A stretch of DNA of 64,000 bases from a virus: the IMG/VR virus record IMGVR_UViG_3300037246_000990, positions 1-64,000 of that record, one strand, 5' to 3'. The position numbers and the translations under genes were made by a program. Positions 14,716 to 63,144 of this stretch are shown piece by piece. The notes beneath the pieces are model-generated. The model worked only from the letters and a program-made list of their open reading frames with translations, had not been told where the DNA came from and searched no databases. Numbering within the stretch: the first letter of the stretch is position 1; every line of letters starts with the position of its first letter.

Positions 14716-14744
14716 TTGCAATTAAAGTTAAAAGTTCCTATAAT
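14716..14744 (+). promoter_or_regulatory. Plus-strand promoter for the HTH unit
   Basis: -35 TTGCAA, 17-base spacer ending TTCC, -10 TATAAT followed by TAAGTAGGAGGAG, so the ribosome site of the next gene (ATG 14761) lies in the start-site region. This gives a very short leader. Confidence 0.8.
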
Positions 14745-32500: not shown

Positions 32501-32946
32501 ATTACATGAGTCCATGTTTTGTTTCGTTTGATGCAGCCTATTGTGGTACGATGCACCTCATAATCTTTACTTATCACACGATGTGTTCTAGGGTCACAAC
32601 GAATAGCTCTCACTTGTACTTCAGTGAGTTTTGCTCTTCCGTTGTGAACTCCACGAGAGACTCCGGCTACCTGCCGTCCTTTGTGCACCTTGTCGGCCAT
32701 GTTGTCAGCTTGTGTACCCAAGAACAGATGAGAAGGTCTTACACATTTACCGTTGTCACAGCTATGGCACACGCACATCCCTTTAGGGATACTACCGTGT
32801 CCCATCTCCCATGCTACTCTGTGCGCGGCAATACGGCGTCCTCTCAAGGTGAAGTAAGGATACTTTCCATTGAAGTTACGCCATACCCAGCATTCTGGCC
32901 CACTCTTCACCTTAGCCCAAAACCTTTCTTTAATACTAATCTTCAT
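32497..32946 (-). CDS. HNH homing-type endonuclease (RFWAKV family, copy 1)
   Basis: 149 aa from ATG 32946 behind AGGAGTAGAA. ERFWAKVKSGPECWVWRN, RRIAAHRVAWEM, CVCHSCDNGKCVRPSHLFLG (HNH core with H, C and N/H positions), then AKLTEVQVRAIRCD and a C-terminal HTH-like VISKDYEVHRTTIGCIKRNK. Closely similar to the nucleases at 53185 and 61434. The C-terminal helices probably give DNA recognition. Lies next to the tRNA-Thr. Confidence 0.88.
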   Translation of the reverse strand: MKISIKERFWAKVKSGPECWVWRNFNGKYPYFTLRGRRIAAHRVAWEMGHGSIPKGMCVCHSCDNGKCVRPSHLFLGTQADNMADKVHKGRQVAGVSRGVHNGRAKLTEVQVRAIRCDPRTHRVISKDYEVHRTTIGCIKRNKTWTHVI

Positions 32947-33268: not shown

Positions 33269-33297
33269 ATTATAGCTTTTCCTGAGAATAATTGCAA
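33269..33297 (-). promoter_or_regulatory. Minus-strand promoter P1 (distal)
   Basis: -35 TTGCAA, 17-base spacer ending AAAGC, -10 TATAAT. Its -35 lies only 11 bases from the -35 of the divergent right-arm promoter, so polymerase at one may block the other. Confidence 0.8.
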
Positions 33298-33308: not shown

Positions 33309-33337
33309 TTGCAAAAGTTTGAAAGAAAAGCTATAAT
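33309..33337 (+). promoter_or_regulatory. Right-arm promoter
   Basis: -35 TTGCAA, 17-base spacer ending AAAGC, -10 TATAAT, then GAAGGT and ATG at 33344. The leader is nearly absent. It would transcribe the 17-gene array of small metal-site proteins. Confidence 0.85.
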
Positions 33338-33343
33338 GAAGGT

Positions 33344-33658
33344 ATGAAAGAATGGATAGAAGGTTCAGGGGTTTACAGGGTTCCAGTCGAGGAACTCCCT
33401 AAGGATGCGTGGTTTGTCAGAGACCCAAAACGGTATGAAAACGAAGAAGTACAGCCTCTTCTGCATATCTGTGAGCAGGACCTAGACACAGGGGACACCA
33501 CGACATGGCTCATCTTGACTGCAAGAGTCCGGTGGGACTTTCATCGCGGCCTTTATTACTGTACAGGGTGCAAAAAGACATGGAACTCAACAAACGAGAA
33601 TGGGTTAAGAGCTATCTGGAGCGATGGTTTAGGCACGGGCGACGAAGGTCTGGCTTGA
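33344..33658 (+). CDS. H-C/C-x2-C small protein family, member 1
   Basis: 104 aa. This family, which I do not recognise, shares a short N-terminal segment, an H-x(0-2)-C, then C-x2-C and a hydrophobic end. Here LLHIC supplies His and Cys, YYCTGC the Cys pair, and NGLRAIW the end segment. The N-terminal W/F motif is less clear (DAWFVRD). The extra C-terminal tail overlaps the next gene in another frame. Promoter-proximal gene of the right arm. A single zinc site is inferred from the ligands. Confidence 0.7.
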   Translation: MKEWIEGSGVYRVPVEELPKDAWFVRDPKRYENEEVQPLLHICEQDLDTGDTTTWLILTARVRWDFHRGLYYCTGCKKTWNSTNENGLRAIWSDGLGTGDEGLA

Positions 33659-34026
33659 GAAACTACCACCGGAAGACGCTCATCCGCAAGGAGATGTGGC
33701 CCCAGATCGACGACTGGTACTGGTGCCCGAAACCCATCATCGATGAGAGGGTCCAGAAGGAGGATGACAGACTGAACATCATTGCTAGAGCCTCTCCGAT
33801 CTGGTTTGCGTTCGAATCGTGGAAGGCCCTACAATACGCATTAGGGTCCCGATTGGCACATGCTTGTGATGATGGCAGGATCAGGGCTGCATCGTGGGTG
33901 GAATACTACAGGGGCAAAGGAGGAAGTATCGGTATCTACGGTAAATGCCGACACTGTGAGGAGACCCTTTCTGATGGGATTAAAGGTATCATCATCATGG
34001 AGGAGGAGCTAGGATGGGAAACATAG
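33580..34026 (+). CDS. H-C/C-x2-C family, member 2
   Basis: 148 aa from ATG 33580. Much longer N-terminus than other members, basic (REWVKSYLERWFRHGRRR) and aromatic (DDWYWCPK). Family part: LAHACD, then CRHC, then DGIKGIIIM. Long overlap (79 bases) with member 1 in another frame. A later start is possible, since no strong ribosome site precedes 33580. Confidence 0.6.
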   Translation: MELNKREWVKSYLERWFRHGRRRSGLRNYHRKTLIRKEMWPQIDDWYWCPKPIIDERVQKEDDRLNIIARASPIWFAFESWKALQYALGSRLAHACDDGRIRAASWVEYYRGKGGSIGIYGKCRHCEETLSDGIKGIIIMEEELGWET

Positions 34027-34349
34027 CCCGCACCATTCGTCGTGCTGGACCACTCCGCTTTACCGCCGACTGGAGCTGTAGCACCGTCTATCAACGCGTC
34101 CCTTCCAAAGAAGAGACGCAAAAGTCGCAAACTTCGATAAAGAAAATAGCCGAGAGGGTATACCTCGTTAAGTACAACTCAGTCGCGCATGAGATGCTCG
34201 TCCACCTCTGCGAGGATCGAGGAGACTACAAAGAGATGACATTCCGTGAGAACGACGACGGCCCGATGTATTGGTGTGAAGGGTGTGGGTTCGTTCTCGA
34301 TGACGGTACAGCGATGGCAATACGACTTTACGAAGCACCGATTTCATAG
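34014..34349 (+). CDS. H-C/C-x2-C family, member 3
   Basis: 111 aa. TADWSCS may be the N-terminal motif; LVHLCED and YWCEGC are the four ligands; DDGTAMAIRL replaces the usual P-x2-I-x-G segment, so this is one of the most diverged copies. Overlaps member 2 by 13 bases. Confidence 0.65.
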   Translation: MGNIARTIRRAGPLRFTADWSCSTVYQRVPSKEETQKSQTSIKKIAERVYLVKYNSVAHEMLVHLCEDRGDYKEMTFRENDDGPMYWCEGCGFVLDDGTAMAIRLYEAPIS

Positions 34350-34357
34350 GAGACAAC

Positions 34358-34564
34358 ATGGGTAAACGAAGACGCAATCCGAAAACAATCCTTGCAGGAG
34401 CAATAGGGTTCTCGAAAATACGTTACTGCCCGGATCACAACAAGCCTGTGAAGGCCGTGAGACTGTTCGGCAGAAAAAGTATGATGTTCCACTGTGCCGA
34501 AGGCTGCAAGCTGGACAAGAACAGAACCGTCCTCAAGGTGCCGGAAGGCCCCCAGAAACGATAA
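34358..34564 (+). CDS. Small basic Cys/His protein
   Basis: 68 aa. Not a clear family member: CPDH, then FHCAEGCKLDKN, with basic ends (MGKRRRNPKT and GPQKR). The Cys/His layout suggests another small metal site, possibly a nucleic-acid binder. TAGGAGACAAC is a strong ribosome site. Confidence 0.6.
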   Translation: MGKRRRNPKTILAGAIGFSKIRYCPDHNKPVKAVRLFGRKSMMFHCAEGCKLDKNRTVLKVPEGPQKR

Positions 34565-34947
34565 TGCCGGATATAATGCTGAAGTACGGCTGCACAGAAG
34601 ACCAAATCCGATTCGAAATGGATGACTGGGCGTTGGTCGCTACGCCCGTAGGTCACGAAGGATTGGACTGTGTGCATGGATGCCACCGCAAAGACAGCAT
34701 AGGCATAGTCATTCAGTGGAGCTACGCGATACCGGGCGATCCGAATTGCCCTGGTTGTGACGCGGTCATGCCTGATGAGGTACAGGGCTTGTTCCAAATG
34801 GCAAATGCAGACTATATAGGGCGGATCCCTATTGGTTGGTACAAGCAAGAGATCGAACGTGGCGTCGCCAAAAGCTTCGCCCAACTCGAGAAGCAATACT
34901 TCCTCAGCGGGTCAGGGTATAAGTACGACCCCAAGGAGGAGGCATGA
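34564..34947 (+). CDS. H-C/C-x2-C family, member 4
   Basis: 127 aa. MDDWALV, CVHGCHR, CPGC, MPDEVQGLFQM: a complete set. Followed by a unique tail of about 45 residues (IGWYKQEIERGVAKSFAQLE). Start overlaps the previous stop (TAATG). Confidence 0.75.
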   Translation: MPDIMLKYGCTEDQIRFEMDDWALVATPVGHEGLDCVHGCHRKDSIGIVIQWSYAIPGDPNCPGCDAVMPDEVQGLFQMANADYIGRIPIGWYKQEIERGVAKSFAQLEKQYFLSGSGYKYDPKEEA

Positions 34948-35480
34948 GCGGATACCACCAGATGATTAAGGATCTCATGACGAGACCTAAGATACCGGCC
35001 AGCCTTCACACAGTGGGCAAATGGGCTATACCCACAGAAAGCGCAATGCTTTTTACGGCAGGCGGGCACCCTGTTCAACCACCGCCACCTCCACATACAC
35101 TGATCTACAACGACAAAGACCCGGACTACAATCCTCATTTCGAAGACCTAAAAGAAGTAACCTGTGAAATCCTTTTTGAACTCGACGGGTGGCAAATCGA
35201 GCACTACGAAGGTACCCCTACCCCATCTGAAGTGGATTGGATCTCGCACGACTGCCCGGTAGAGAAATGGCGCTATCGCATCGATCAATGGCAATTGATG
35301 GGCGACGGCGTATGCCCTGCTTGTTGCACACCCGTTCCGGACGAGGTGATGGGATTATGGAAACTAAAGAACTTCGACAAACTCCCCGCAATGGAAGAAG
35401 CGAGACACATGAGCCACGTACGTATCTATCCGGATAGCCACACGCCTGAAGATGCAGAAGGAGATATGCCGTGGGTCTAG
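34944..35480 (+). CDS. H-C/C-x2-C family, member 5 (long N-terminus)
   Basis: 178 aa, the longest member. About 80 extra N-terminal residues, including a proline run (VQPPPPPH). Family part: LDGWQIE, ISHDCPV, CPACC, PVPDEVMGLWKL. ATGA coupling with member 4. Confidence 0.75.
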   Translation: MSGYHQMIKDLMTRPKIPASLHTVGKWAIPTESAMLFTAGGHPVQPPPPPHTLIYNDKDPDYNPHFEDLKEVTCEILFELDGWQIEHYEGTPTPSEVDWISHDCPVEKWRYRIDQWQLMGDGVCPACCTPVPDEVMGLWKLKNFDKLPAMEEARHMSHVRIYPDSHTPEDAEGDMPWV

Positions 35481-35752
35481 AAGATCTCTTCTTGTACAAC
35501 GACACACCTATAATCGAGGAAGGAACATGGAGACTCCTCGCACCTACTAAATGGGGTGTGAAATGGAAACACCTTTCCGAAGCACCTATCGTGATTCACG
35601 TATGCCCTAAAGCTCCTTTATATGCGGGGGAGCGTGAAGTCAGCTCTAACCGCATGAAAGACTCCCCATACTGCACGATATGCAAAGAAGAGGTCCCTGA
35701 GAGCATCCAAGCCGTATGGCAGATGACACATATGGAGGCAATGTTAGGATGA
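35471..35752 (+). CDS. H-C/C-x2-C family, member 6 (GTG start)
   Basis: 93 aa, GTG start at 35471 inside the end of member 5. EGTWRLL, VIHVCPK, YCTIC, VPESIQAVWQM. Two Pro in the middle loop. All ligands intact. Confidence 0.75.
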   Translation: MGLEDLFLYNDTPIIEEGTWRLLAPTKWGVKWKHLSEAPIVIHVCPKAPLYAGEREVSSNRMKDSPYCTICKEEVPESIQAVWQMTHMEAMLG

Positions 35753-36024
35753 ACCCCTTTTCTCTAGCCAACTACGAATGCGTAATGGAAGATGAGACTT
35801 GGTACCTAGTCCGAAACAATTGGTCACGCAACTACAACCTACGCCATTACTGCGCTGATGGGGAGATGGACGACCTCTGTGCGAGGTACCGCTGGGATGA
35901 GTTCCAGCGGGCTTGCCGGAGATGTGGGAGCCTCCCGAGCAAAGAGATCCAAGGGATGTACGTCATGTTGACAGGAGACATGGACGCTGCCCCTCGGTGT
36001 GTACCAGAAGGGACAAAGTACTAG
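35749..36024 (+). CDS. H-C/C-x2-C family, member 7
   Basis: 91 aa from ATG 35749 (ATGA overlap; an in-frame codon 33 bases earlier is less likely). DETWYLV, LRHYCAD, ACRRC, SKEIQGMYVML, with a short tail DMDAAPRCVPEG that adds another Cys. Confidence 0.75.
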   Translation: MNPFSLANYECVMEDETWYLVRNNWSRNYNLRHYCADGEMDDLCARYRWDEFQRACRRCGSLPSKEIQGMYVMLTGDMDAAPRCVPEGTKY

Positions 36025-36032
36025 GAGACGCT

Positions 36033-36374
36033 ATGACGTACCAACCGACAGCGTACATGAGCATGCTACAGCGAGAAGGCCGATTCCGGTTGTTGAAGAG
36101 CAAGCTGAGCAAAGACGTCCGGATCTGGCATAACTGCGAGACCTACGGCGACGCAGAACTCGTCAAGCACCGTACCGTCTACGTATGCCAGTACGGCGAC
36201 TGGGAACAGTTCGATTCTAGTCCGGATGAGCATGGCTGGCGCTGCACGATGTGCAACGCTCTCAGCCCTGAAGGGTTAACTGGAATCTACATCATGCTGG
36301 ACTGGGACCGCGCTACAAACGAAATCGCAAACGTTTCAGAGCAAATGTCCGAGTATGAGGCGTTACCGTTTTGA
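36033..36374 (+). CDS. H-C/C-x2-C family, member 8
   Basis: 113 aa from ATG 36033 behind AGGAGACGCT. EGRFRLL, WHNCET, RCTMC, SPEGLTGIYIML, then an acidic tail. One of few array members with a free-standing ribosome site rather than a stop overlap. Confidence 0.75.
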   Translation: MTYQPTAYMSMLQREGRFRLLKSKLSKDVRIWHNCETYGDAELVKHRTVYVCQYGDWEQFDSSPDEHGWRCTMCNALSPEGLTGIYIMLDWDRATNEIANVSEQMSEYEALPF

Positions 36375-36638
36375 GTGACTACCGTGAGTAGCTTCCTCGA
36401 CGAGCAGATCCTGTGGGAGGATGACGGGTTCATCATCATCACCGATCACTACATCGATCCTGGCCGGGAGGGATTACCGACTGCCACGTTGTGGCACCGA
36501 TGCCGTGACAAGACAGACGATGCCAGCGTGATATGCCGCCCGCAAGAATACCCATGGTGCTCTGGTTGTCACCTTCATGTTCCTGCTGAGCTGGTTGGGT
36601 TCTGGGAGCTGGTGCGATACGGGCAGGAGCAAGGATGA
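36375..36638 (+). CDS. H-C/C-x2-C family, member 9 (GTG start)
   Basis: 87 aa, GTG directly after the previous TGA. DDGFIII, LWHRCRD, WCSGC, VPAELVGFWEL. Strongly acidic first half (LDEQILWEDDG). Confidence 0.7.
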   Translation: MTTVSSFLDEQILWEDDGFIIITDHYIDPGREGLPTATLWHRCRDKTDDASVICRPQEYPWCSGCHLHVPAELVGFWELVRYGQEQG

Positions 36639-37087
36639 GTTTATCTAACATGATTAACGTGAGAGACGTATGGAAAGACCAAGCCGAGTACATCGAAAAA
36701 GAGTACGGCGATGAGAAGCTCAAACGAGGCCGGTGGAGAGTCATCCAGTACTCCGTACACCACAGCGATGTAGGAGAGCACGGACTCTGGCACCAGTGTG
36801 AAAAGACAGAATGGGAGATGTACCTTTGTGAGTACCGAGCCGACGTAGGGTCTGACTCTAGTTTCAATGGGACCCGGAAGATCAAGCCCAACTGGCACTG
36901 CGAGAACTGCTTCGCAGTTCCACCCGCAAGCATCGTTGCTGTCTGGTGCCTGCTAGAGCCTGACGTAACCTCCGCGGAGGTGAGCACAGCCTTGAAGCTA
37001 CGCGCCGATATAGACGACGAAGAAAGGTATGATAACGTATGTTGGCAAAGCAGGCAGGTCCCCCTCCCGTACAAAGGGCCCTACTAA
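36635..37087 (+). CDS. H-C/C-x2-C family, member 10
   Basis: 150 aa. RGRWRVI, WHQCEK, HCENC, PPASIVAVWCL, then a 40-residue acidic tail (EVSTALKLRADIDDEERYDN). ATGA overlap with member 9. Confidence 0.75.
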   Translation: MSLSNMINVRDVWKDQAEYIEKEYGDEKLKRGRWRVIQYSVHHSDVGEHGLWHQCEKTEWEMYLCEYRADVGSDSSFNGTRKIKPNWHCENCFAVPPASIVAVWCLLEPDVTSAEVSTALKLRADIDDEERYDNVCWQSRQVPLPYKGPY

Positions 37088-37347
37088 TGGATACCCTGGA
37101 CGTCTACAAAACTGACGGGGACTGGCGGTTGTCTCGCAGGTGCGCCGGGACAAAGATGCGGCATACGTTCCTAGAGCACAACTGCGGTTACGAAGACCCC
37201 CGGGCAGTGGTACAACCTAGCAAACGGTACTGGCATGCGCTTATCTACACCGTCGAGGCCCGAAACCAGGCTTGTGCTCTTTGTCAGACCCGGGCTTCAG
37301 ACGGCCTCCAAGCGATATTCTGGATCATGAAAGAGGAGCCCATATGA
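37087..37347 (+). CDS. H-C/C-x2-C family, member 11
   Basis: 86 aa from ATG 37087 (TAATG overlap). DGDWRLS, LEHNCGY, ACALC, SDGLQAIFWIM. From here to member 16 the members are alike in length and C-terminus, marking a younger subgroup. Confidence 0.78.
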   Translation: MDTLDVYKTDGDWRLSRRCAGTKMRHTFLEHNCGYEDPRAVVQPSKRYWHALIYTVEARNQACALCQTRASDGLQAIFWIMKEEPI

Positions 37348-37583
37348 CTGACGTCAAAACGGTCCGCTTTGAAGATGGACTTTTCAGGCTATCCCGGTAC
37401 CGATACAAGGGCGGGTTTGACTGGTGGTTCATCGAGCACCGGTGTGGCCGTGGAGGCCACTGGAAATGGTTTAGTGGGGTCCCGGAAGACTGCCACGCAC
37501 CGTGTTGGGCTTGCACAGCCGTCGTTCCGGACGGGCTCCATGCGATGTTCTGGTTCGTGAAGGATGGACAAGGTTATGAATGA
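37344..37583 (+). CDS. H-C/C-x2-C family, member 12
   Basis: 79 aa from ATG 37344 (ATGA overlap). DGLFRLS, IEHRCGR, PCWAC, VPDGLHAMFWFV. A compact form of the family with no extra tail. Confidence 0.78.
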   Translation: MTDVKTVRFEDGLFRLSRYRYKGGFDWWFIEHRCGRGGHWKWFSGVPEDCHAPCWACTAVVPDGLHAMFWFVKDGQGYE

Positions 37584-37842
37584 CTCGAAAACGCAACCCA
37601 CCCCCTTAGCCGCCGAAGGTGGTTGGGGGTTGTATGAGCAAGGCGAAGACACGCCAGACTACATGCAAGGAACCCCTTACTTGTGGTATTTGTGGCATGA
37701 CTGTGGGCCCGAGAGGGTGGGCTGCGCCCAACGATTCATGTACAAGCATATGGACACAGCTTGTTCATGGTGTAACTGCCCTGTACCTGCGGGGCTCCAG
37801 GCGTTGTTCGTCCTGCTGACAGGAGACATGGAACATGAATAA
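37576..37842 (+). CDS. H-C/C-x2-C family, member 13
   Basis: 88 aa from ATG 37576. EGGWGLY, LWHDCGP, ACSWC, VPAGLQALFVLL, with the ending TGDMEHE shared in part with member 7 (TGDMDA). An extra Cys (GCAQ) lies in the loop. Confidence 0.75.
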   Translation: MNDSKTQPTPLAAEGGWGLYEQGEDTPDYMQGTPYLWYLWHDCGPERVGCAQRFMYKHMDTACSWCNCPVPAGLQALFVLLTGDMEHE

Positions 37843-38068
37843 AGAGACTCTGATCACTATCGATGCCTTCCGGATTACTCAACGCCCCTGGAACTCAAGC
37901 TCTGTATATATCGAGCATTATTGTAATGGGGAATACACCGGACGTGGCCCGGGTTGGTTGGTTCACGCTTGCGACACCAGAGCCAGCCAACACCCTTGCT
38001 GCTTCTGCAAAGAGAAACCAGCAGACGGGATCCAGGCCATGTTCTGGTTCTTGAAGGAAGGGTCATGA
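37835..38068 (+). CDS. H-C/C-x2-C family, member 14
   Basis: 77 aa, the shortest member of the array. IDAFRIT, IEHYCNG, PCCFC, ADGIQAMFWFLKEG. The last 31 bases before the end (38030-38060) are identical to those of member 15, suggesting recent duplication or gene conversion. Confidence 0.78.
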   Translation: MNKETLITIDAFRITQRPWNSSSVYIEHYCNGEYTGRGPGWLVHACDTRASQHPCCFCKEKPADGIQAMFWFLKEGS

Positions 38069-38304
38069 CAGTTCTGATCACTATCGGTAAGTTCCGGCTT
38101 ACCTACCGCGACCGCATCGCCTCGGGCATGCGTGATGTCTGCATCGAGCATAAATGCGAAAGCGCGAACGCCTGGCCCATGAAAGGCTGGCATCCTTTCG
38201 TTTACGGGCTCGACTACCGGGGTATTTCGTGTTTCGCATGTCATGCGACCCCTGATGAAGGTATCCAGGCCATGTTCTGGTTCTTGAAGGAAGCCCGTGA
38301 CTAA
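38065..38304 (+). CDS. H-C/C-x2-C family, member 15
   Basis: 79 aa from ATG 38065 (ATGA overlap). IGKFRLT, IEHKCES, SCFAC, DEGIQAMFWFLKEA. Starts MTVLITIGKF, close to ETLITIDAF of member 14. C-terminal DNA identical to member 14. Confidence 0.78.
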   Translation: MTVLITIGKFRLTYRDRIASGMRDVCIEHKCESANAWPMKGWHPFVYGLDYRGISCFACHATPDEGIQAMFWFLKEARD

Positions 38305-38536
38305 ACAAACCCACATTACAGATGGGAACTGGCGCGTCACAGGCTGGAACGACTCAGGTATCTATGCGTATACCATGATCGAGCATTTATGCGTCAAACA
38401 CCCAGACCTCTCTGGATGGTGCGACCTGAGCTACGGCGTTGCGTATCGCGGGATGCCTTGCATGTACTGCAAGAAATCCGCTCCGGGGGGCATCCAGGCT
38501 GTGTACTGGTTCTTGAAGGATAACGAACTGAAATGA
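38297..38536 (+). CDS. H-C/C-x2-C family, member 16 (GTG start)
   Basis: 79 aa. DGNWRVT, IEHLCVK, PCMYC, PGGIQAVYWFLKDN. GTG start lies inside the end of member 15. Belongs to the same young subgroup as members 11-15. Confidence 0.78.
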   Translation: MTKQTHITDGNWRVTGWNDSGIYAYTMIEHLCVKHPDLSGWCDLSYGVAYRGMPCMYCKKSAPGGIQAVYWFLKDNELK

Positions 38537-38832
38537 CTAAAGACGAATGCGAAGTCAAGCTCGAAATGGGCGATTGGATGATAGCGAAGTTCTATGCATC
38601 GAGCGTACACTTCATGTACCACCGATGTCATATTGATAAAGTGTCGTATTACGCAGCGATGTTCCACGAACTGGCGTTCTCTCCAAGAGCAGGATGCTCC
38701 AACCCCTGCTGGGCCTGTGCTGGTTGTGGAGCCTCGGTTCCAGAGGAGCTGGAAACCGTGTATCTACTGCTCGAATCAGAGTACGCGTACGACATCATGC
38801 AAAAGCACCAAAACACCTTAAATAACACCTAA
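38533..38832 (+). CDS. H-C/C-x2-C family, member 17
   Basis: 99 aa. MGDWMIA, MYHRCHI, CWACAGC (three Cys, a C-x2-C-x2-C cluster that may alter the site), VPEELETVYLLL, helical tail. Last gene of the tandem array, before the long non-coding stretch. Confidence 0.75.
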   Translation: MTKDECEVKLEMGDWMIAKFYASSVHFMYHRCHIDKVSYYAAMFHELAFSPRAGCSNPCWACAGCGASVPEELETVYLLLESEYAYDIMQKHQNTLNNT

Positions 38833-39470
38833 ATCAGGCCATTTTCGGGGTCTGATACCCGAGTCCCGACTCAACCCAGTCAAGAGATTCGTAAGAAACA
38901 ACATAGACTTACCATAAATACCTCTAGTACCACCAAGAACCACCATGTGTATATTATAACCCCCATTCCGGCCCTCTAGACCTCCTGTCCTCTGGTCTTG
39001 GGTGTTATAACACCAAGGAATAAGACTAACTACACGTAAATAAAGGCATTATTGCGAATGACAGGTACGATTCTAGCACATAAAGAGCAAAAAGGGTCTA
39101 AAACTACACAGATTCAGCTAATCCCGCGATCTAGTTGGATATATTAAGCTGATGGCAAGACCAACAGACCCACCCCCCCTTAAAAACAGTAGTAGGTACC
39201 TCTATGCTGTAACTCCCTGGCATTGAAGCACTATATCTGTAACCCCACGTCCTTGCTCGGGTATTATCAGTAGAAAACAAGGTCACTATACGGTGTCAGT
39301 CTCAGCCCTCCGAGGGGAAGCTATTTAGTATGGACCGGAGGCAAGTCGGCGGCGTAAGTAGTTGATTTTATTGACGTTTTGACTTTCTCGACCGGATGTG
39401 CGACACTTGAAAAGTCGAGCGGCGGACAATCCGCTGCTACGGTAAACTAAACCCGACATCAGAGAACCAA
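38833..39470 (+). other. Long non-coding region between array and middle genes
   Basis: 638 bases with no convincing gene on either strand (the longest starts give peptides of 24-29 residues without ribosome sites). It holds the palindrome GGTGTTATAACACC at 39001-39014, a pair of inverted similar blocks (CTGATACCCGAG at 38852 and CTCGGGTATTATCAG at 39256), an eight-C run near 39170 and hairpin AGCGG/CCGCT near 39418. Candidate regulatory region or replication origin; no -35/-10 of the common type was seen. Confidence 0.5.
39001..39014. promoter_or_regulatory. Perfect 14-base palindrome (possible operator)
   Basis: GGTGTTATAACACC, extended to CTTGG...CAAGG with one unpaired G. Perfect dyads of this size in a phage intergenic region are typical of repressor or other dimer binding sites. 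No second copy was noticed. Confidence 0.4.
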
Positions 39471-39722
39471 ATGTACAGACTCAGCAAACGACCCAGCCCG
39501 ATGACCATGTTTGTCAGTGCTTGCGACACGGTGAGACGCCAAGAGGCCAAAATCGACGTACAATGTCGCAAACTGGAGGGTCTAAAGGCCTTGGTCCTGG
39601 CCCAAGAGCATAGGATCGAGATAGCAGAGCGCAAGAAGCGACACCTTGAGAAACTCCGGTGGGACAGAGAGCTAATGCTTGGCTTCACTAAAGCCGAGAA
39701 AAAGATCACAACTAGGGCATAA
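39471..39722 (+). CDS. Small coiled-coil protein (83 aa)
   Basis: MYRLSKRPSPMTMFVSACDT then a long helix (EAKIDVQCRKLEGLKALVLA, IEIAERKKRHLEKLRW). First gene after the non-coding region. No family recognised. Confidence 0.6.
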   Translation: MYRLSKRPSPMTMFVSACDTVRRQEAKIDVQCRKLEGLKALVLAQEHRIEIAERKKRHLEKLRWDRELMLGFTKAEKKITTRA

Positions 39723-39751
39723 TGCCCCAGTCACGTAGGAAGGAGAACACC

Positions 39752-42604: not shown

Positions 42605-42682
42605 ATGATCGTTTTCATCTGTGTTGTCGTGGTTCTAGGTGTGACCAGTGCTGCCTCGTTGTGGTGGGGCTCTGAGGCATGA
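42605..42682 (+). CDS. Tiny membrane peptide (25 aa)
   Basis: MIVFICVVVVLGVTSAASLW then WGSEA: a single hydrophobic helix. Strong ribosome site ATAGGAGAC; ATGA overlap with the next family member. Directly under leader motif copy 3, so this is probably translated. Confidence 0.5.
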   Translation: MIVFICVVVVLGVTSAASLWWGSEA

Positions 42683-42918
42683 CAACTCAGTACGTTATCT
42701 CAGCGCTGTTCACACTGGGTGACTGGTGTATCAGCAGCGACCCAACGGCACTACCTCGACACTATGCAGCTCATCGCTGTCCTGGTAAACACACGTACAC
42801 AACATGGGCTTGGGCTGTACCAGACTCTAGATTTAACAGGTTCGTGTGTTACTACTGCCATGAGTCTGTGCCTGATGAGATACAAGGGCTACTGGTCTTG
42901 CTCTCATCAAAGATATAA
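42679..42918 (+). CDS. H-C/C-x2-C family, member 18
   Basis: 79 aa. FTLGDWCIS, AAHRCPG, VCYYC, VPDEIQGLLVLL. Shares the LFTLGDW start with members 19 and 20, forming a second subgroup. Coupled to a tiny membrane peptide. Confidence 0.78.
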   Translation: MTTQYVISALFTLGDWCISSDPTALPRHYAAHRCPGKHTYTTWAWAVPDSRFNRFVCYYCHESVPDEIQGLLVLLSSKI

Positions 42919-44128: not shown

Positions 44129-44350
44129 ATGGTAGACCTAGAAGCAGACATCGAAGGCTTGAAGGCTAAGATCGAGGCGCTTCAAAGATCAAAGAGGCGT
44201 ATGATCAAGGCTCACATGGGTCTCATCAAGGAGAACAAACGCAAGAAGAGGCAAGCTAAGAGGCTGGCCCAGATGCTGGAAGCAGGAGAAAATCTCTACG
44301 GTAGCTACGCAGACTGGACAGCGGAGCAGTTCGGAGAGGCACCGAAGTGA
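44129..44350 (+). CDS. Coiled-coil protein (73 aa)
   Basis: VDLEADIEGLKAKIEALQRS and MGLIKENKRKKRQAKRLAQM are a basic coiled coil; the end LYGSYADWTAEQFGEAPK is different. TAGGAGACACG upstream. Next gene starts inside its end. Confidence 0.6.
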   Translation: MVDLEADIEGLKAKIEALQRSKRRMIKAHMGLIKENKRKKRQAKRLAQMLEAGENLYGSYADWTAEQFGEAPK

Positions 44351-44625
44351 CAGCCTCGCCCGCTGCTTTGTTTACTCTGGGTGACTGGAGTATACACACG
44401 GACTCGAACACCGTGGAAGGCCCTAAATTCTACGCAAACCATAAGTGTACGAAGTACAACACGCAGCCAGCAGGCCGGGGTCTGTTGGCTGAGTATGTAA
44501 TGAGTCGGTTTGCGTGGGTCAAGGAGGATGATGGTTTCAAGTGCTATTACTGCCAAAAGCATGTGCCTGATGAGATACAAGGGATGCTGCTGATGTTCTG
44601 GTCGGGTATCAAAGGGAGTCGGTGA
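44347..44625 (+). CDS. H-C/C-x2-C family, member 19 (GTG start)
   Basis: 92 aa. GTG at 44347 overlaps the preceding stop. LFTLGDWSI, YANHKCT, KCYYC, VPDEIQGMLLMF. Pairs with member 20: both have LFTLGDWSI and YYANHKC-like text, so they are a recent tandem duplicate. Confidence 0.78.
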   Translation: MTASPAALFTLGDWSIHTDSNTVEGPKFYANHKCTKYNTQPAGRGLLAEYVMSRFAWVKEDDGFKCYYCQKHVPDEIQGMLLMFWSGIKGSR

Positions 44626-44888
44626 TGGCCGAGACTTTGTTTACTCTGGGTGACTGGAGTATCGTGGATAACTATGAAGAAGAGTGCTTTGAGTACTACG
44701 CAAATCATAAGTGTGACCTCAAAGAATACAAGAGGGTACGCAAGCTAACCAACACTGCAGAGGTTAGACCTGGAAGCTATGCTTGGTTCAGCACGGACGA
44801 TCCAAATGTTTGTTACTACTGCTGTGTGCCTGTGCCTGCTGAGATCCAAGGTTTGATGGTGCTGCTCATGGCAGGAGTCAGGAGGTAA
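44625..44888 (+). CDS. H-C/C-x2-C family, member 20
   Basis: 87 aa from ATG 44625 (TGATG overlap; GTG three bases earlier also possible). TLFTLGDWSIV, YYANHKCD, VCYYCC, VPAEIQGLMVLL. Basic central loop (KEYKRVRKL). Confidence 0.78.
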   Translation: MAETLFTLGDWSIVDNYEEECFEYYANHKCDLKEYKRVRKLTNTAEVRPGSYAWFSTDDPNVCYYCCVPVPAEIQGLMVLLMAGVRR

Positions 44889-45057: not shown

Positions 45058-45182
45058 TGCTAAGTGATGTGCAGTTGCTTGAGGCCATAGGAGAGCGAGG
45101 AAAGAATCGAGATACAATACTACGGCTACGCATCGCACTACTAAGTGCACTAGCCTGCTTGCTACTGCATGTGATACCATGA
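45057..45182 (+). CDS. Small membrane protein (41 aa)
   Basis: MLSDVQLLEAIGERGKNRDT then a hydrophobic C-terminal helix (ILRLRIALLSALACLLLHVI). TGATG overlap before and ATGA overlap after. Tail-anchored layout. Confidence 0.5.
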   Translation: MLSDVQLLEAIGERGKNRDTILRLRIALLSALACLLLHVIP

Positions 45183-45493
45183 GTAAACCCGCCGGGTTCA
45201 GGCACTCCGAGATGTTCGTAGACGATACCTACCTAGAGCTAGAAGATAATTGGATGATACATAGGTATCGAAACCTCGGTGGCCGATGGAATGCTGGTGC
45301 TAGACACAAGCACGTTAATGATGCAAGATGTACCGGCACCAACTCAATAGACTCTGTGTATGCCTACCTCGACCATGATGCGGATGATGGCTGGAGCTGC
45401 ATGGTGTGTGGAGAGACAGCACCCGACCGAGTACTAGGGATGGAAAAGTTGGTTCAATACGGTAACAGGTGTGAAAACGAGGAGACACGATGA
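45179..45493 (+). CDS. H-C/C-x2-C family, member 21
   Basis: 104 aa. EDNWMIH, then ARHKHVNDARC (His and Cys spaced further apart than usual), SCMVC, APDRVLGMEKL. Acidic tail. A diverged copy. Confidence 0.7.
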   Translation: MSKPAGFRHSEMFVDDTYLELEDNWMIHRYRNLGGRWNAGARHKHVNDARCTGTNSIDSVYAYLDHDADDGWSCMVCGETAPDRVLGMEKLVQYGNRCENEETR

Positions 45494-49287: not shown

Positions 49288-50336
49288 AAAGCGTGTATGA
49301 TTACCTACCAAAGATCGACGCCAACACAGCAGAGGAGATGGCTAAACAAGCTGGCCTTGACTTCGATGCTATCAAGCTGGAGATACCGTACTCGTACCAA
49401 CCTCCAATGCCTGATGGTTTGGTGGCTCAGCTCATTGAGAAGGGCTTGAGTGCGGCAGAGATTCTGAATCACATCGAAGATCACCCTCACCTCGTGCCTC
49501 GGAAGGTGGAGAGTGTGGTGCCTGACAAGGTGATCGTAGTGCGAGAGGATGACGGTCGTTACCTAGGTACAGTGGGTAAGGATCGAGGCATCGTGCAGTA
49601 CCGTGATGTGCTGGCTTTCACTGAGGCATTGGTGGATAAGGGCACAGCATCCTACGTGACAGGTGGGATACTAGGCAACGGGCAGCAGGCGTTCGTTGTT
49701 ATGAAGGCAAAGAACACCATCAAGCTGAGCGGTACGGATGAGGTGGACTGTTACTTCTACATCACCACCTCACATGACAGCACCAAGGGACTGGAGATTG
49801 TGTTCGCTCCATTGAGGACTGTCAACGGCACCATCCTCACTGGTCCTAAGTCACAGCGGATCCGCTTCCGGCACAGCAGCAAGGTAGAGCAGCGAGTGAA
49901 GCGAGCAGCGATGAGCATTGACAAGATCAGCTCCTACTTTGAGGACATGGAAGAGAACTTTCGATTGCTCAGATCAGTCAAGCCCACCGTATCTCAGCTC
50001 GATGTGTTCATTCAGTCTCTGTTCCCTGACCCGGAAGAGAAGAAGAAGAGAGCAGAGAACATTCGGGATGAGATCTACAGCATCTATCGCAACGGACCAG
50101 CGTGTCAGCTACCCGCAACACAAGGCACCATGCTCGGTGCTTACTTTGCTGTGGTTGAATGGGTTGACAAGCAGCAGGCAACCAAGACATCGAAGGTCAG
50201 GCCCAATGAGTACGATGCCAAGATTCATAGGCTGCTGGAAGGCAGCGGGGCAGAGCAGAAGGCGACAGCCTACGCCTTCGCCCTCGACATGGTAGACAAG
50301 CTGAAGGATGTCAACATCTTCGGCAACAAGGTGTAG
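49284..50336 (+). CDS. DUF932 / phage-plasmid-like protein
   Basis: 350 aa from ATG 49284 (ATGA overlap). GTVGKDRGIVQYRDVLAFTE, GGILGNGQQAFVVMKAKNTI, CYFYITTSHDSTKGLEIVFA, VNGTIL, RIRFRHSSKVEQRV and GTMLGAYFAVVEWVDKQ follow the DUF932 layout, a widespread phage and plasmid family of unknown function often near recombination genes. Length is typical. Confidence 0.75.
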   Translation: MKSVYDYLPKIDANTAEEMAKQAGLDFDAIKLEIPYSYQPPMPDGLVAQLIEKGLSAAEILNHIEDHPHLVPRKVESVVPDKVIVVREDDGRYLGTVGKDRGIVQYRDVLAFTEALVDKGTASYVTGGILGNGQQAFVVMKAKNTIKLSGTDEVDCYFYITTSHDSTKGLEIVFAPLRTVNGTILTGPKSQRIRFRHSSKVEQRVKRAAMSIDKISSYFEDMEENFRLLRSVKPTVSQLDVFIQSLFPDPEEKKKRAENIRDEIYSIYRNGPACQLPATQGTMLGAYFAVVEWVDKQQATKTSKVRPNEYDAKIHRLLEGSGAEQKATAYAFALDMVDKLKDVNIFGNKV

Positions 50337-50337
50337 C

Positions 50338-50643
50338 ATGAGCGAGACACATAAGAAAATTGAGTTGTTAGATGGAGAAACATTACTCCTTGAGTCTGAA
50401 GAGTGGGCTGTTATACTCGACTCCAGCGACGGGCGTGGTGCAATCCTAGCGTATGGGTCACACGAAGAGTGTACGGTTAGCTTTGACCCAAAGCGAGCAG
50501 CTCCTGGTAATAAGTATTACTATGGTGAATACTCCTGGCTGCCAGAGGACCCGCCAACCTGTAAGTACTGTAACGAGCCTGTCCCGGATGGGATACAAGC
50601 GATTGTACACCTAAGAAACTGGGGACTAAGAGGAGAAACATGA
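50338..50643 (+). CDS. H-C/C-x2-C family, member 22
   Basis: 101 aa from ATG 50338. SEEWAVI, SHEECTV (H-x2-C), TCKYC, VPDGIQAIVHL. Long acidic N-terminus. Shares the PVPDGIQA text with the array subgroup. Confidence 0.75.
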   Translation: MSETHKKIELLDGETLLLESEEWAVILDSSDGRGAILAYGSHEECTVSFDPKRAAPGNKYYYGEYSWLPEDPPTCKYCNEPVPDGIQAIVHLRNWGLRGET

Positions 50644-52712: not shown

Positions 52713-52955
52713 ATGCCTGCCTTGGTACGACAGGGTGACTGGAGGTTACACACAGCTACATCAGGGTCAGGTCGCCTCTATGTTACGCACTGGCATAGCA
52801 AAGTTGGGGGTCATAGAGGGGATTGGTCTCGATGTGGCACCTACAACGGAGACACTTGGGACCCTGCTGCGTGTAACAAGTGCGGTGAGACACCACCCAA
52901 GGAAATGCAAGGCTTCATCAACCTGATGTCATGGGATAGAGGAGAAGTAACATGA
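52713..52955 (+). CDS. H-C/C-x2-C family, member 23
   Basis: 80 aa. RQGDWRLHT, then WSRCGTY (the first His is displaced; WHSK lies earlier), ACNKC, PPKEMQGFINLM. Lies between the ATPase and its probable VWA partner. Confidence 0.72.
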   Translation: MPALVRQGDWRLHTATSGSGRLYVTHWHSKVGGHRGDWSRCGTYNGDTWDPAACNKCGETPPKEMQGFINLMSWDRGEVT

Positions 52956-53661: not shown

Positions 53662-54879
53662 ATGAAGAAAATCGACACTGACAATCCGAGAGAGAAGCTA
53701 ACAAAAGCTCGGATGCAGCTTCTAATGGCCTTTCCTTTCTTCGGTGAACTTGTAATGCGGATAGTTTTTCACGAGTCTAAAACAGCCGGGGTAGGTACTA
53801 CCTGTATAGATCATAAGGGTAATCTTTGGTATCACCCTGATTGGGTACGTGGGTTCACCTCTACTCAAGAAACTATGTTTGAGTTGAGTCACGAAGTCAT
53901 GCACTTGGTACAGCGATGCACCGTCCGGTTCCCCAACGGGGGCAACCATCAGGTGTGGAATATTGCGGCTGACATCAAGGTAGATAGCATCCTCGTTGAT
54001 GCAGGGATGGCCCAATCCAGGGTGAGTAAGAAGAACATCACCGACGAGATCATGGAGAAGTACAAAGGCAAGACCACGGAGCAGATCTATTACCATCTGA
54101 TCCAGAACCCAGAGGATCAGAAAGACTTTGGTGGTTGCCCCCACCCCGATGGGGAAGGGGGTGAAGGCCCTAATACTAAGCCGGGTAGCCAAGTTGGTGA
54201 TCGTGGCTGTACCTCAGGTGCTTTGCATGGTGAGAAGATAGACACCGAGACGATAGAGAAGTGGAAGCAACACGTTATCGCCGCTGCTATCAATGCAAAG
54301 AACAGGGGTAAGTGCCCTGGATTTGCTGATGATTTCTTGGTTGATATCCGCAGACCCAGCGTGACATGGAAGGATCTCCTCCGAAGGCAAGCTACCTCGA
54401 TGTTCCGTGGTAGATACGGCTACCATCGTGACAACAGGCGGTCCCGTGCCTTCGGGATGAAGCTCCCATCAAGGACACGTAGCCCCAATGGTGCCATCAT
54501 AATGATCGACACCTCTGGGTCTATCAGTGACGACAACCTGTCTCAGTTTGTATCGGAATGCTCCGGTATCCTGAGAGAAACAGGGTGTCAGTTCCTCAAG
54601 ATCTACTTCCATGATGTTGAGTGCTACCACATAGAGGAGTACGACCTCAACACCATCAAGAAGATCAAGGCCACACGGGGTGGCACCTCACACATTGATG
54701 TCTTTGAGAAGGTGGAAGAAAGCCGTGACAAGGTAGGTATGGTGATCGCCTTCACTGATTTAGAGACAGCGTTCCCTCCAATACCGCCTGAGTTCCCGGT
54801 ACTCTGGGCTCACCCGCCTGGATACGAGCAGCATGCAGTGCCCTTCGGGATCAAGGTGAAGGTGGACCTGACGCTGTGA
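53662..54879 (+). CDS. VWA-like protein with metallopeptidase-like N-terminus (DUF2201-like)
   Basis: 405 aa. HEVMH at 77-81 in FELSHEVMHLVQR is a zincin-type HExxH site; WNIAADIKVDSILVDAG follows, as in DUF2201_N proteins. A Gly/Pro-rich linker leads to a VWA-like domain with MIDTSGSIS at 281-289 (DxSxS metal site). Such proteins pair with MoxR ATPases; here the ATPase is at 51562. Function in phages unknown. Confidence 0.8.
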   Translation: MKKIDTDNPREKLTKARMQLLMAFPFFGELVMRIVFHESKTAGVGTTCIDHKGNLWYHPDWVRGFTSTQETMFELSHEVMHLVQRCTVRFPNGGNHQVWNIAADIKVDSILVDAGMAQSRVSKKNITDEIMEKYKGKTTEQIYYHLIQNPEDQKDFGGCPHPDGEGGEGPNTKPGSQVGDRGCTSGALHGEKIDTETIEKWKQHVIAAAINAKNRGKCPGFADDFLVDIRRPSVTWKDLLRRQATSMFRGRYGYHRDNRRSRAFGMKLPSRTRSPNGAIIMIDTSGSISDDNLSQFVSECSGILRETGCQFLKIYFHDVECYHIEEYDLNTIKKIKATRGGTSHIDVFEKVEESRDKVGMVIAFTDLETAFPPIPPEFPVLWAHPPGYEQHAVPFGIKVKVDLTL

Positions 54880-55280
54880 GCCAAGACAGGGAGATACCCG
54901 CGCCGGGCAATGTCCTTCAGGTCGATGGAGAGTGGCAACTTGAAAATCACAACCACGACAAGGGACCCGTCATCAGACACAACTGCGACGACGAAAACAA
55001 CGGCAATACCTACATTATAGACTTGAACCGTGAATTCCCGATGTGCCGCCATTGTGGTGCTGACATACCGAACAGTATGATCTCGGGGTTTAGCTTACTC
55101 AACTACAACGAGTCCACAAACGATGAGTACTTCGTGGATCCTAAGTATGAAGTCCTAGACTTTGTCTACAACGGGCACCTCCGAGAAAGATGGGACAAAG
55201 TGATCGTAGTCGAGGAAATTGACAAAGAGCAGGTACTAGCAGCCATAGCCGAATGGAAAACTGAACAGGAGTTGACATGA
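54876..55280 (+). CDS. H-C/C-x2-C family, member 24 (GTG start)
   Basis: 134 aa, GTG overlapping the VWA stop (GTGA). VDGEWQLE, IRHNCDD, MCRHC, IPNSMISGFSLL, then a unique 65-residue acidic tail (ERWDKVIVVEEIDKEQVLAA). The tail could be a partner-binding region. Confidence 0.72.
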   Translation: MSQDREIPAPGNVLQVDGEWQLENHNHDKGPVIRHNCDDENNGNTYIIDLNREFPMCRHCGADIPNSMISGFSLLNYNESTNDEYFVDPKYEVLDFVYNGHLRERWDKVIVVEEIDKEQVLAAIAEWKTEQELT

Positions 55281-58656: not shown

Positions 58657-58998
58657 ATGATTAAACCTTTTCAAAACTATATGGCAGCATACCAGGCTGA
58701 CAGCAAAGCACTCCTTCACGATGGTAACTGGACTATCGAGAAGCTAAGTGAACTAGAAGAAGCACAGGGCTTCAGGTCACATCGGAGTGATTACTTCTCA
58801 TTGCTCAAGCATGTGTGTTATCCCAAGGGGTACGACGGTAAGGTTCCTTACCCAGAAAACGGGAGCAACTGCGTGTATCAAGTGGTGGTGTACCCCGACG
58901 TCAGATCAGATTGCTGGCGTTGCGCGGCAAAGATACCCGAAGGCATGGTAGCGGTGTGGAAGTTTCAGAATTGGGAGCAACTAAAGTATGGAGGCTAA
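58657..58998 (+). CDS. H-C/C-x2-C family, member 25
   Basis: 113 aa. HDGNWTIE, LKHVCYP, DCWRC, IPEGMVAVWKF. Tyr/Gln-rich N-terminus and a long central loop. Overlaps the next gene by 11 bases. Confidence 0.73.
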   Translation: MIKPFQNYMAAYQADSKALLHDGNWTIEKLSELEEAQGFRSHRSDYFSLLKHVCYPKGYDGKVPYPENGSNCVYQVVVYPDVRSDCWRCAAKIPEGMVAVWKFQNWEQLKYGG

Positions 58999-59680: not shown

Positions 59681-59712
59681 GTTTGCCATCAACCTCGCAA
59701 GGTGGGCAACAG

Positions 59713-59994
59713 ATGCTGACGCTTGAAAAGATCTTTGAGAAACAGATCAGAACCAACATTATTAAAAGGGAAATCCTGTTTGAAGATGGGCTATGGTGTA
59801 TCTACAAAAGAACACCAGCCGACATTAACAGCACACACAGTCTCATCCATAGATGTAGTATATACGTATGGTCCGCAACCCTAAAAACACTTCCGGTCAG
59901 GTGCCCTGAATGTGAAGAGGCAGCACCTGAAGGGATACTGGGGTTGCTTGAGCTGCAACAGTGGGGAACAAAGGACGGTAAGTATGCTAATTGA
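59713..59994 (+). CDS. H-C/C-x2-C family, member 26
   Basis: 93 aa from ATG 59713 (AAGGTGGG upstream; a TTG at 59683 is an alternative). EDGLWCIY, LIHRCSI, RCPEC, APEGILGLLEL. The end overlaps the helicase start. A tiny frame MSKFAINLARW at 59674 may couple its translation. Confidence 0.72.
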   Translation: MLTLEKIFEKQIRTNIIKREILFEDGLWCIYKRTPADINSTHSLIHRCSIYVWSATLKTLPVRCPECEEAAPEGILGLLELQQWGTKDGKYAN

Positions 59995-61908: not shown

Positions 61909-62178
61909 ATGGATGCTATAAAGTATGGCCAAGTCATGCTCACAGAAGGTGAGTTCTCCATCAAGGCAGGAATATTTAGTTATTTCATAGTACATGACGT
62001 TTGTGGTACTGGTGTTTATTCTGTAATGAGAGACAGGACCCCAGGGAAACATGATTGGTGCCGACGCTGCTACGACCTCTACGGTAAGAAGATACAATAC
62101 GATGAGAAAATGACAGGAATCGTAGCTCTACTAGATTGGAAAGATGAAGGAGACAGCCGTGACCAATTTGCTGAGTAA
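61909..62178 (+). CDS. H-C/C-x2-C family, member 27 (diverged)
   Basis: 89 aa. TEGEFSIK, IVHDVCGT (H-x2-C), WCRRC, then a longer linker before KMTGIVALLDW. The Pro of the final segment is lost. Still has all four ligands. Confidence 0.68.
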   Translation: MDAIKYGQVMLTEGEFSIKAGIFSYFIVHDVCGTGVYSVMRDRTPGKHDWCRRCYDLYGKKIQYDEKMTGIVALLDWKDEGDSRDQFAE

Positions 62179-62857
62179 CGCAAAGACAAACGCTAAGACA
62201 AAGAAGATGTTGGATGAGTTCGGATACGAAGGGGTCATTCACTACATGGCGCCTGACGTGGTGGCTGACGGAAAACACACAGTATGCCCTCATAGCACGA
62301 TAGGTTGCCGTGAGTCTTGTCTATATACTGCTGGTCGAGGAGCTATGAGAAATGTGCAAGATGCACGCATCCGTAAGACACTGGAGTTCCTCAAGGACAA
62401 GCAAGGGTACGCAGACAAGTTGGTCAAAGAACTGGCCAACCTTGAGACCCGTGCCTTGAAGAAGGGTTACACGCCAGTAGCTCGGCTGAATGGTACGTCA
62501 GACATCCCATGGGAGAACTACATCGACATGGAAGCCCTCCCCAACGTCCGATTCTATGACTACACCAAGGGTTATATGAGGATGCAGAGCTGGCTGCGTG
62601 GGGTGCTACCTTTCAACTATCATCTGACATTCAGCAATGATGAACACACGACGCTTGCAGAGCGGCACTTCATCCTGGCGAAGGGAGGCACCGTGGCCAT
62701 GGTATTCAGGGATAAGATCCCCGACTGCTGGCAGATGTACCCTGTAATTTCAGGTATGACACACGATTTTAGATTCCGTGACAAGACAGGCTGCATCATA
62801 GGGCTACTCGCAAGGGGCCGTGCCAAGCAAGACAGCACAGGGTTTGTGGTGGATTGA
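62159..62857 (+). CDS. GP88-like phage protein
   Basis: 232 aa from GTG 62159, placed exactly after AAGGAGACAGCC (ATG 62144 is an in-frame alternative). VCPHSTIGCRESCLYTAGRG (C-x6-C-x3-C), ARLNGTSDIPWENYID, VRFYDYTKGYMRM, FNYHLTFSND and HDFRFRDKTGCIIGLLARGR resemble phage GP88-type proteins whose three-Cys cluster recalls radical SAM folds. Function unknown. Confidence 0.65.
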   Translation: MTNLLSNAKTNAKTKKMLDEFGYEGVIHYMAPDVVADGKHTVCPHSTIGCRESCLYTAGRGAMRNVQDARIRKTLEFLKDKQGYADKLVKELANLETRALKKGYTPVARLNGTSDIPWENYIDMEALPNVRFYDYTKGYMRMQSWLRGVLPFNYHLTFSNDEHTTLAERHFILAKGGTVAMVFRDKIPDCWQMYPVISGMTHDFRFRDKTGCIIGLLARGRAKQDSTGFVVD

Positions 62858-63144
62858 TGAGTACGAGCAACGTAGGTACACTAAAGATCCTAGTACCTGA
62901 CATACAAGGGTGGGCAATAGTTAAACACCAGTTCAGCGTGACGGGTACTTCCATCCATGGTGAACATTTAATAGGATGCAAACATGCCTTCGATAGACTG
63001 ATAGCTCGTTGGTGCTGGGAGTGGAGCGATGCTGGTGTAGAGAATACGGACCGCTGTTGGGTGTGTAAAGAACCTGTGCCAGAAGAGATCGTAGCGCTAG
63101 TAGCGATGATGAATTGGGAGAAGATACAACGTGGCAAACCTTAA
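62854..63144 (+). CDS. H-C/C-x2-C family, member 28
   Basis: 96 aa. IQGWAIV, LIGCKHAF (Cys before His, order reversed), RCWVC, VPEEIVALVAMM. ATGATG start (ATGA overlap). The reversed C-x-H suggests ligand swap within the same site. Confidence 0.7.
   Translation: MMSTSNVGTLKILVPDIQGWAIVKHQFSVTGTSIHGEHLIGCKHAFDRLIARWCWEWSDAGVENTDRCWVCKEPVPEEIVALVAMMNWEKIQRGKP

What the first reader, a model, noticed from the sequence alone, without database searches (positions are those of the whole stretch)
33344..38832. Seventeen of these genes form one head-to-tail, translationally coupled array behind a single promoter
From the promoter at 33309 to 38832, seventeen family genes plus one other small gene are contiguous, with ATGA, TAATG or short overlaps and no other function. 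A near-mono-family operon of this length is exceptional. It sits at the very start of the right arm, so it may be expressed first after infection.
Basis: seen in the sequence. Interest (0 to 1): 0.8.

Follow-up and report, generated by a model that had tools for sequence, protein, structure and literature searches.

The report
Phage tandem array of zinc-motif genes
An uncultured ~120-kb phage carries at least 14 and up to 17 copies of one unknown family of small, probably zinc-binding proteins packed head to tail behind a single conserved promoter, part of a 32-copy, fast-changing gene family confined to this phage group, which most likely arms the phage against its host.

Summary
The array is real. 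Window 33344-38832 holds 18 contiguous + strand genes joined by overlaps or gaps of at most 8 nt. Seventeen have the H-x-C...C-x2-C motif; profiles built without close relatives confirm 14 outright and 2 as probable, and leave the first doubtful. The promoter at 33309 is conserved in two related phages, as are the array's place and its first four genes; family copies number 17, 15 and 14. The whole record carries 32 family genes, all rightward. About 20 further related contigs carry the family; 75 more distant phage contigs do not. Nothing matches in Pfam, PHROGs, NCBIfam, PADLOC, PDB sequences or Foldseek. AlphaFold2 gives one confident small domain (four strands, one main helix). The genes are under purifying selection but change faster than other phage genes, and six show a tandem-duplication footprint. 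Best reading: a clade-specific, accordion-like multigene family of promoter-proximal, zinc-stabilised adaptor proteins, probably host-takeover or counter-defence effectors. That function is inferred, not shown. 'Expressed first' is not established: the same promoter sequence stands at three other places in the record, and a close variant drives the left arm.

The parts
33309..33337 (+). Promoter TTGCAA-N17-TATAAT; the -10 box ends 6 nt before the first ATG, so gene 1 would be leaderless
   Evidence: conserved in G001 and G003; identical 29-mer at record positions 67556, 84687 and 112110(-)
33269..33297 (-). Divergent promoter of the left arm with the same hexamers
33344..33658 (+). Gene 1, 104 aa, HxC...CxxC; family membership doubtful (leave-out E 2.1; hhalign 37%)
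   Evidence: ortholog in G001 80%, G003 41%
33580..34026 (+). Gene 2, 148 aa, probable family member
   Evidence: orthologs 74% and 56%
34014..34349 (+). Gene 3, 111 aa, probable family member
34358..34564 (+). Gene 4, 68 aa, basic protein with CPDH...HCAEGC; not a family member, but conserved at this place in all three phages
34564..34947 (+). Family gene 5, 127 aa
   Evidence: E 6e-10
34944..35480 (+). Family gene 6, 178 aa
   Evidence: E 1e-13
35471..35752 (+). Family gene 7, 93 aa
   Evidence: E 1e-11
35749..36024 (+). Family gene 8, 91 aa
   Evidence: E 2e-12
36033..36374 (+). Family gene 9, 113 aa
   Evidence: E 1e-14
36375..36638 (+). Family gene 10, 87 aa
   Evidence: E 2e-12
36635..37087 (+). 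Family gene 11, 150 aa
   Evidence: E 9e-10
37087..37347 (+). Family gene 12, 86 aa
   Evidence: E 4e-10
37344..37583 (+). Family gene 13, 79 aa; protein modelled with AlphaFold2
   Evidence: pLDDT 87
37576..37842 (+). Family gene 14, 88 aa
   Evidence: E 2e-12
37835..38068 (+). Family gene 15, 77 aa
   Evidence: E 3e-12
38065..38304 (+). Family gene 16, 79 aa
   Evidence: E 1e-8
38297..38536 (+). Family gene 17, 79 aa
   Evidence: E 1e-8
38533..38832 (+). Family gene 18, 99 aa
   Evidence: E 5e-12
37300..38522 (+). Six DNA repeats of 37 nt at the 3' ends of genes 12-17, spaced 229-259 nt: footprint of tandem duplication
42679..42918 (+). Scattered family gene
44347..44625 (+). Scattered family gene
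44622..44888 (+). Scattered family gene
45179..45493 (+). Scattered family gene
50308..50643 (+). Scattered family gene
52713..52955 (+). Scattered family gene
54876..55280 (+). Scattered family gene
58657..58998 (+). Scattered family gene
59683..59994 (+). Scattered family gene
61909..62178 (+). Scattered, divergent family gene
62854..63144 (+). Scattered family gene; four more lie beyond the window at about 64.1, 65.7, 67.9 and 77.5 kb of the record

Best explanation
The array is the largest tandem block of a clade-specific multigene family (32 copies in this record) of small single-domain proteins: a four-stranded sheet plus a helix, stabilised by one metal site, H-x-C...C-x2-C, most likely zinc. 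One conserved sigma-70-type promoter at the head of the rightward arm and overlapping start and stop codons would make all copies together from one mRNA. Copies arise by tandem duplication and are gained, lost and reshuffled between close relatives (shown). They keep the metal scaffold and vary in the loop between the two metal half-sites (shown). The most likely role is inferred: a panel of host-directed adaptor proteins (host takeover and/or counter-defence), each paralog meeting a different or fast-changing bacterial target, so that copy number and loop sequence follow the host, as in the gene accordions of large eukaryotic viruses. Shown: array, promoter, homology, turnover, selection regime. 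Inferred: zinc binding, early timing, host targets.
For: Head-to-tail coupling. Promoter and divergent layout conserved in three phages. Metal ligands: H and both CxxC cysteines invariant in 118 of 118 aligned members, the second Cys aligned in 109. AlphaFold2 pLDDT 87, beta-beta-beta-beta-alpha. Real genes under purifying selection, dN/dS 0.15-0.46. Faster than neighbours: median dN 0.22 against 0.08, identity 65% against 87%; dN still higher than in small non-family genes, P 0.003. Loop 49% against 75% identity after the CxxC, P 0.0005. Array copy number 17/15/14 with shared first four genes and a variable remainder. Duplication repeats. Array copies cluster on the tree (11 label changes against 29 when shuffled). 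Products mildly acidic (median pI 5.35) and Trp-rich (3.5% against 1.3%), which suits protein binding better than nucleic-acid binding. Small early genes with promoters and ribosome-binding sites of highly expressed genes are a documented hallmark of a host-takeover module (SPO1, PMC6873191).
Against: No member has a characterised homolog, so the function rests on architecture and evolution alone. Many copies sit among replication and recombination genes in fixed slots, with orthologs in relatives, which would also suit phage-internal roles. The same promoter serves other operons, so early timing is not proven. dN/dS is below 1 everywhere, and against size-matched genes the dN/dS difference is only P 0.07. 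No host is known.
Confidence: 0.5

Rival explanations
1. The proteins are nucleic-acid-binding regulators (zinc-ribbon-like factors acting on RNA polymerase, sigma factor or mRNA) that stage the phage's own transcription.
For: The H-x-C...C-x2-C motif resembles zinc ribbons common in transcription proteins; the phage has its own sigma-like factor (window 56519-57781) and repeated promoters.
Against: The products are neutral to acidic (median pI 5.35). Thirty-two fast-changing copies are more than a conserved promoter set needs. No match to zinc-ribbon families above threshold.
Confidence: 0.15
2. Phage-internal adaptor proteins: each copy is a small accessory subunit of the gene beside it (replication, recombination, ATPase/VWA proteins), and the array supplies further versions.
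For: Scattered copies sit next to the MoxR-like ATPase, the VWA protein and DnaB-like and RecA-like genes, several in the same slot in G000, G001 and G002.
Against: The number of copies per slot changes between close relatives while neighbour genes stay about 85-95% identical. The array has no partner genes apart from the small gene 4.
Confidence: 0.15
3. Neutral or selfish duplication: an easily duplicated small gene spreads within the genome with little benefit to the phage.
For: DNA repeats at gene ends favour unequal recombination; copies appear in many slots.
Against: Purifying selection on every ortholog pair tested (dN/dS 0.15-0.46); reading frames and coupling intact in all copies; array kept across phages with about 60% identical core genes.
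Confidence: 0.1
4. Ordinary close-packed phage early genes wrongly grouped as one family because they share a CxxC.
For: Pairwise identities are low (20-44%) and the first gene fails the leave-out test.
Against: Fourteen of 17 score E about 1e-8 or better with a profile built without them and their close relatives; 200 shuffled versions of each do no better than 0.05. Invariant H and CxxC and a confident shared-alignment model.
Confidence: 0.04

Closest known systems
Host takeover module of Bacillus phage SPO1 (26 genes; PMC6873191)
   Same: A cluster of many small genes with promoters and ribosome-binding sites of highly expressed genes; proteins act, or are proposed to act, on host processes.
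   Different: As described, SPO1's module is a set of proteins with different targets; here at least 14 of 18 genes are one homologous family behind one promoter. No functional data here, and no sequence match to known phage families was found.
Multigene families and gene accordions of large eukaryotic DNA viruses (poxvirus accordions, African swine fever virus MGF360/505; from general knowledge, no paper retrieved)
   Same: Tandem paralog arrays whose copy number varies between close relatives, with many lineage-specific copies.
   Different: Unrelated proteins and hosts; here a bacterial virus with a translationally coupled operon; role in host interaction not tested.
Lar restriction-alleviation family (PF14354; phrog_6795)
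   Same: Small phage protein with two metal half-sites followed by a helix; one array gene has a weak PHROG hit (E 0.002).
   Different: The Pfam Lar model finds nothing in the record even at E 10; only one of the ten proteins in that PHROG scan hits it; half-site is H-x-C rather than C-x2-C.
Generic zinc-ribbon and zinc-finger families in Pfam
   Same: H-x-C...C-x2-C ligand pattern.
   Different: No Pfam hit near a cut-off for any of 73 members and no solved structure at E 0.001 or better.

Membership tests
SPO1-type host takeover module | Contiguous cluster of many small genes with strong promoter and ribosome-binding sites | tested here: met
   18 genes of 68-178 aa, coupled, good Shine-Dalgarno sites at most starts, consensus promoter
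SPO1-type host takeover module | Expression early in infection | not testable with these tools
   Only promoter sequence and position available; same promoter found elsewhere in the record
SPO1-type host takeover module | Products shut down host processes | not testable with these tools
   No host and no experiment
SPO1-type host takeover module | Heterogeneous proteins with different targets | tested here: not met
   At least 14 of 18 are one family; targets unknown
Viral multigene family / gene accordion (works like) | Tandem homologous copies with copy-number differences between close relatives | tested here: met
   17, 15 and 14 array copies in three phages, with gains, losses and moved copies; tandem repeat footprint
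Viral multigene family / gene accordion (works like) | Copy number or variants adapt to host or defence | not testable with these tools
   No host range or evolution data
Lar restriction alleviation (PF14354) | Match to the family model | tested here: not met
   No match in the record at E 10; controls work
Known Pfam, PHROG, NCBIfam or PADLOC family | Profile match above cut-off | tested here: not met
   73 members scanned, only isolated single-member hits of E 0.009 or worse
Zinc-ribbon-like metal protein | Conserved metal ligands in a compact small domain | tested here: met
   H and CxxC invariant in 118 of 118; confident model
Zinc-ribbon-like metal protein | Actual zinc binding | not testable with these tools
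   Needs metal analysis of purified protein
HNH homing endonuclease | HNH domain match | tested here: not met
   Family members give no HNH match, while three true HNH_3 proteins in the window do

The most novel reading that the evidence does not exclude
This phage lineage uses a genuine gene accordion: a new small metal-protein fold amplified into a polycistronic, translationally coupled array of paralogs at the head of one arm, each paralog's loop adapted to a different bacterial target or defence protein, with copies gained and lost as hosts change - a bacterial-virus counterpart of poxvirus and ASFV multigene families.
Probability: 0.3. Interest if true: 0.85.

Novelty: new variant of a known kind. 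Interest (0 to 1): 0.62.

Why it matters
If the copies are host-directed, each is a candidate inhibitor of a bacterial process or defence, and the array would let one test in bacteria how viral gene accordions form and adapt. The family also escapes every profile library tried, so it is dark matter in annotation.

Tried and rejected
Lar restriction-alleviation proteins (none). HNH homing endonucleases (no match; real ones lie elsewhere in the window). Known families in four libraries and PDB sequences. Foldseek against PDB and BFVD with two models (best E 0.35, not meaningful; an Acb4 anti-CBASS chain appears at E 2 and is noise). DNA-level relatives among isolated phages (none) and tblastn with one member (none). 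Degenerate DNA patterns for the motif in viral contigs returned only the two known relatives or nothing. Terminase and ATPase searches in prokaryotic genomes found no host or prophage. A structured RNA in the gap after the array: folding is no better than shuffles and Rfam finds only the tRNA. A first alignment was too diverse for a direct locus scan. Paper searches for phage gene accordions or tandem paralog arrays gave nothing relevant.

Full report
WHAT WAS CHECKED. The window is bases 1-64000 of an IMG/VR virus record of 119,599 bp. I took the rest of the record in three stretches. The virus looks podovirus-like: P22-type portal and a terminase on the left arm, an A-type DNA polymerase, DnaB-like and RecA-like genes on the right arm (by eye), and a sigma-like factor. 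The right arm starts at 33309.

THE ARRAY. There are 18 genes from 33344 to 38832, all on the + strand, all with intact frames. Of the 17 junctions, six are 4-nt ATGA overlaps, two are TAATG, six are longer overlaps (one of 79 nt), and three are gaps of 0 or 8 nt. Most starts have a good Shine-Dalgarno match. Terminator-like sites are no more common than in shuffled sequence. The promoter TTGCAA-N17-TATAAT sits at 33309-33337; the same kind fires leftward from 33297. Both are present at the same place in two relatives. The -10 box ends only 6 nt before the first ATG here, 6 in G001 and 5 in G003, so gene 1 is probably translated from a leaderless mRNA (inference).

IS IT ONE FAMILY? A scan for H-x-C...C-x2-C finds all 17. 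An HMM of 28 members finds 32 in the record, all on the + strand between 33.3 and 77.8 kb, and iteration adds none. Because that HMM was trained on the same genes, I rebuilt it for each array gene without the gene and its close relatives. Genes 5-18 score E 1e-8 to 1e-14. Gene 2 scores 3.7e-5 and gene 3 0.0017, and profile-profile comparison gives 93% and 85%. Gene 1 fails (E 2.1; 37%) and is counted as doubtful. Gene 4 is not family, but is conserved at this place in all three phages.

RELATIVES. Scans of viral contigs gave G001 (IMGVR_UViG_3300005253_000004, 119,470 bp; terminase about 90% identical), G002 (16.6 kb) and G003 (49 kb; VWA protein about 60%; its metagenome 3300009506 is MaiPo-8, PMC6461988). 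Iterated HMM counts are 36 in G001, 9 in G002 and 18 in G003. G001 has an array of 15 and G003 one of 14 at the same place, with the same first four genes in the same order. Downstream, G001 lacks clear counterparts of several G000 copies and has three of its own between the counterparts of genes 10 and 11. About 20 further contigs with DnaB 65-91% identical carry family genes, in one case in a run of four; 75 contigs with only a 26-35% identical ATPase carry none. The family is thus confined to this phage group as far as these collections show. It was not found in isolated phages by the searches tried.

EVOLUTION. dN/dS for 23 ortholog pairs lies between 0.15 and 0.46, so these are real, maintained proteins. 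They change faster than other right-arm genes (median dN 0.22 against 0.08). Against size-matched small genes dN is still higher (P 0.003) but dN/dS only marginally so (P 0.07). The loop between the two metal half-sites is least conserved (49%), the part after CxxC most (75%). Six 37-nt DNA repeats with 229-259 nt spacing at the ends of genes 12-17 are the footprint of tandem duplication. On a tree, array and scattered copies are clustered by position (11 changes against 29 in shuffles), though with few columns many forks are open.

PROTEIN. H and both cysteines of CxxC are invariant in 118 aligned members. AlphaFold2 gives pLDDT 79 for one member and 87 for array gene 13 with the deeper alignment: four strands, a short and a main helix. 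No library or fold search gives a relative. The products are neutral to acidic and rich in tryptophan.

INTERPRETATION. Shown: a tandem, coupled, promoter-headed array of a clade-specific protein family that duplicates, moves and diverges while keeping its metal-site scaffold. Inferred: zinc binding, early expression, and a role against the host. I prefer host takeover or counter-defence at 0.5, since a promoter-proximal block of small, variable, mostly non-basic proteins without partner genes fits it best, and since it resembles SPO1's module in layout (PMC6873191) and viral multigene families in dynamics (general knowledge). Regulators of phage transcription, adaptors for neighbouring replication genes, and neutral duplication remain open.

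LIMITS. Only three records hold the array. The host is unknown. Record ends are not closed. Timing is unmeasured.

Noticed in passing
window 38833-39470: ORF-free 638 bp after the array, 83% identical to G001 over 627 columns, with a 38-nt core still recognisable in G003; no Rfam match and no RNA fold better than shuffles. It lies near the cumulative GC-skew minimum (which gene orientation could also explain), so it may be a replication origin or regulatory DNA.
   Followed up: partly
record positions 33309, 67556, 84687 (+) and 112110 (-): An identical 29-nt promoter TTGCAAAAGTTTGAAAGAAAAGCTATAAT occurs four times; a second class, TTCCTATAATTAAGTAGGAG-like, occurs at 14716(+), 33262(-), 12675(-) and 99538(-). 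Possibly two temporal promoter classes.
   Followed up: partly
window 33338-33346: First array gene starts 6 nt after the -10 box, so its mRNA is probably leaderless; same spacing in G001, 5 nt in G003.
   Followed up: partly
window 34358-34564: Non-family 68-aa basic protein inside the array with its own CxxH...HCxxxC motif, conserved at the same place in all three phages.
   Followed up: partly
window 12734-13513: Tyrosine integrase (PF00589, E 2e-21), with a phage promoter just upstream; unexpected if the virus is purely lytic.
   Followed up: partly
window 32500-32943 (-), 53185-53655, 61434-61895: Three HNH_3 homing endonuclease-like genes.
   Followed up: partly
L002:1522-2745 and L002:17674-18261 (record about 64.5 and 80.7 kb): RtcB RNA ligase and Clp protease homologs carried by the phage.
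   Followed up: partly
L003:1044-1508 (record about 82.0-82.5 kb): Protein with two dockerin-like repeats (DDGIVGFLDF..., DADGNGIVGFSDF...), which by eye recall Planctomycetota proteins; no Pfam hit. A weak hint at the host.
   Followed up: partly
window 39722-40048 and 43088-43474: Two apparently paralogous small genes of another unknown family (KTQLKAAKAELKRINDFI... / MSVKEMKAELKRLNAFI...), no Pfam match.
   Followed up: partly
L123:1-1152: In a related contig four family genes stand head to tail upstream of DnaB, so tandem expansion happens at other slots too.
   Followed up: no
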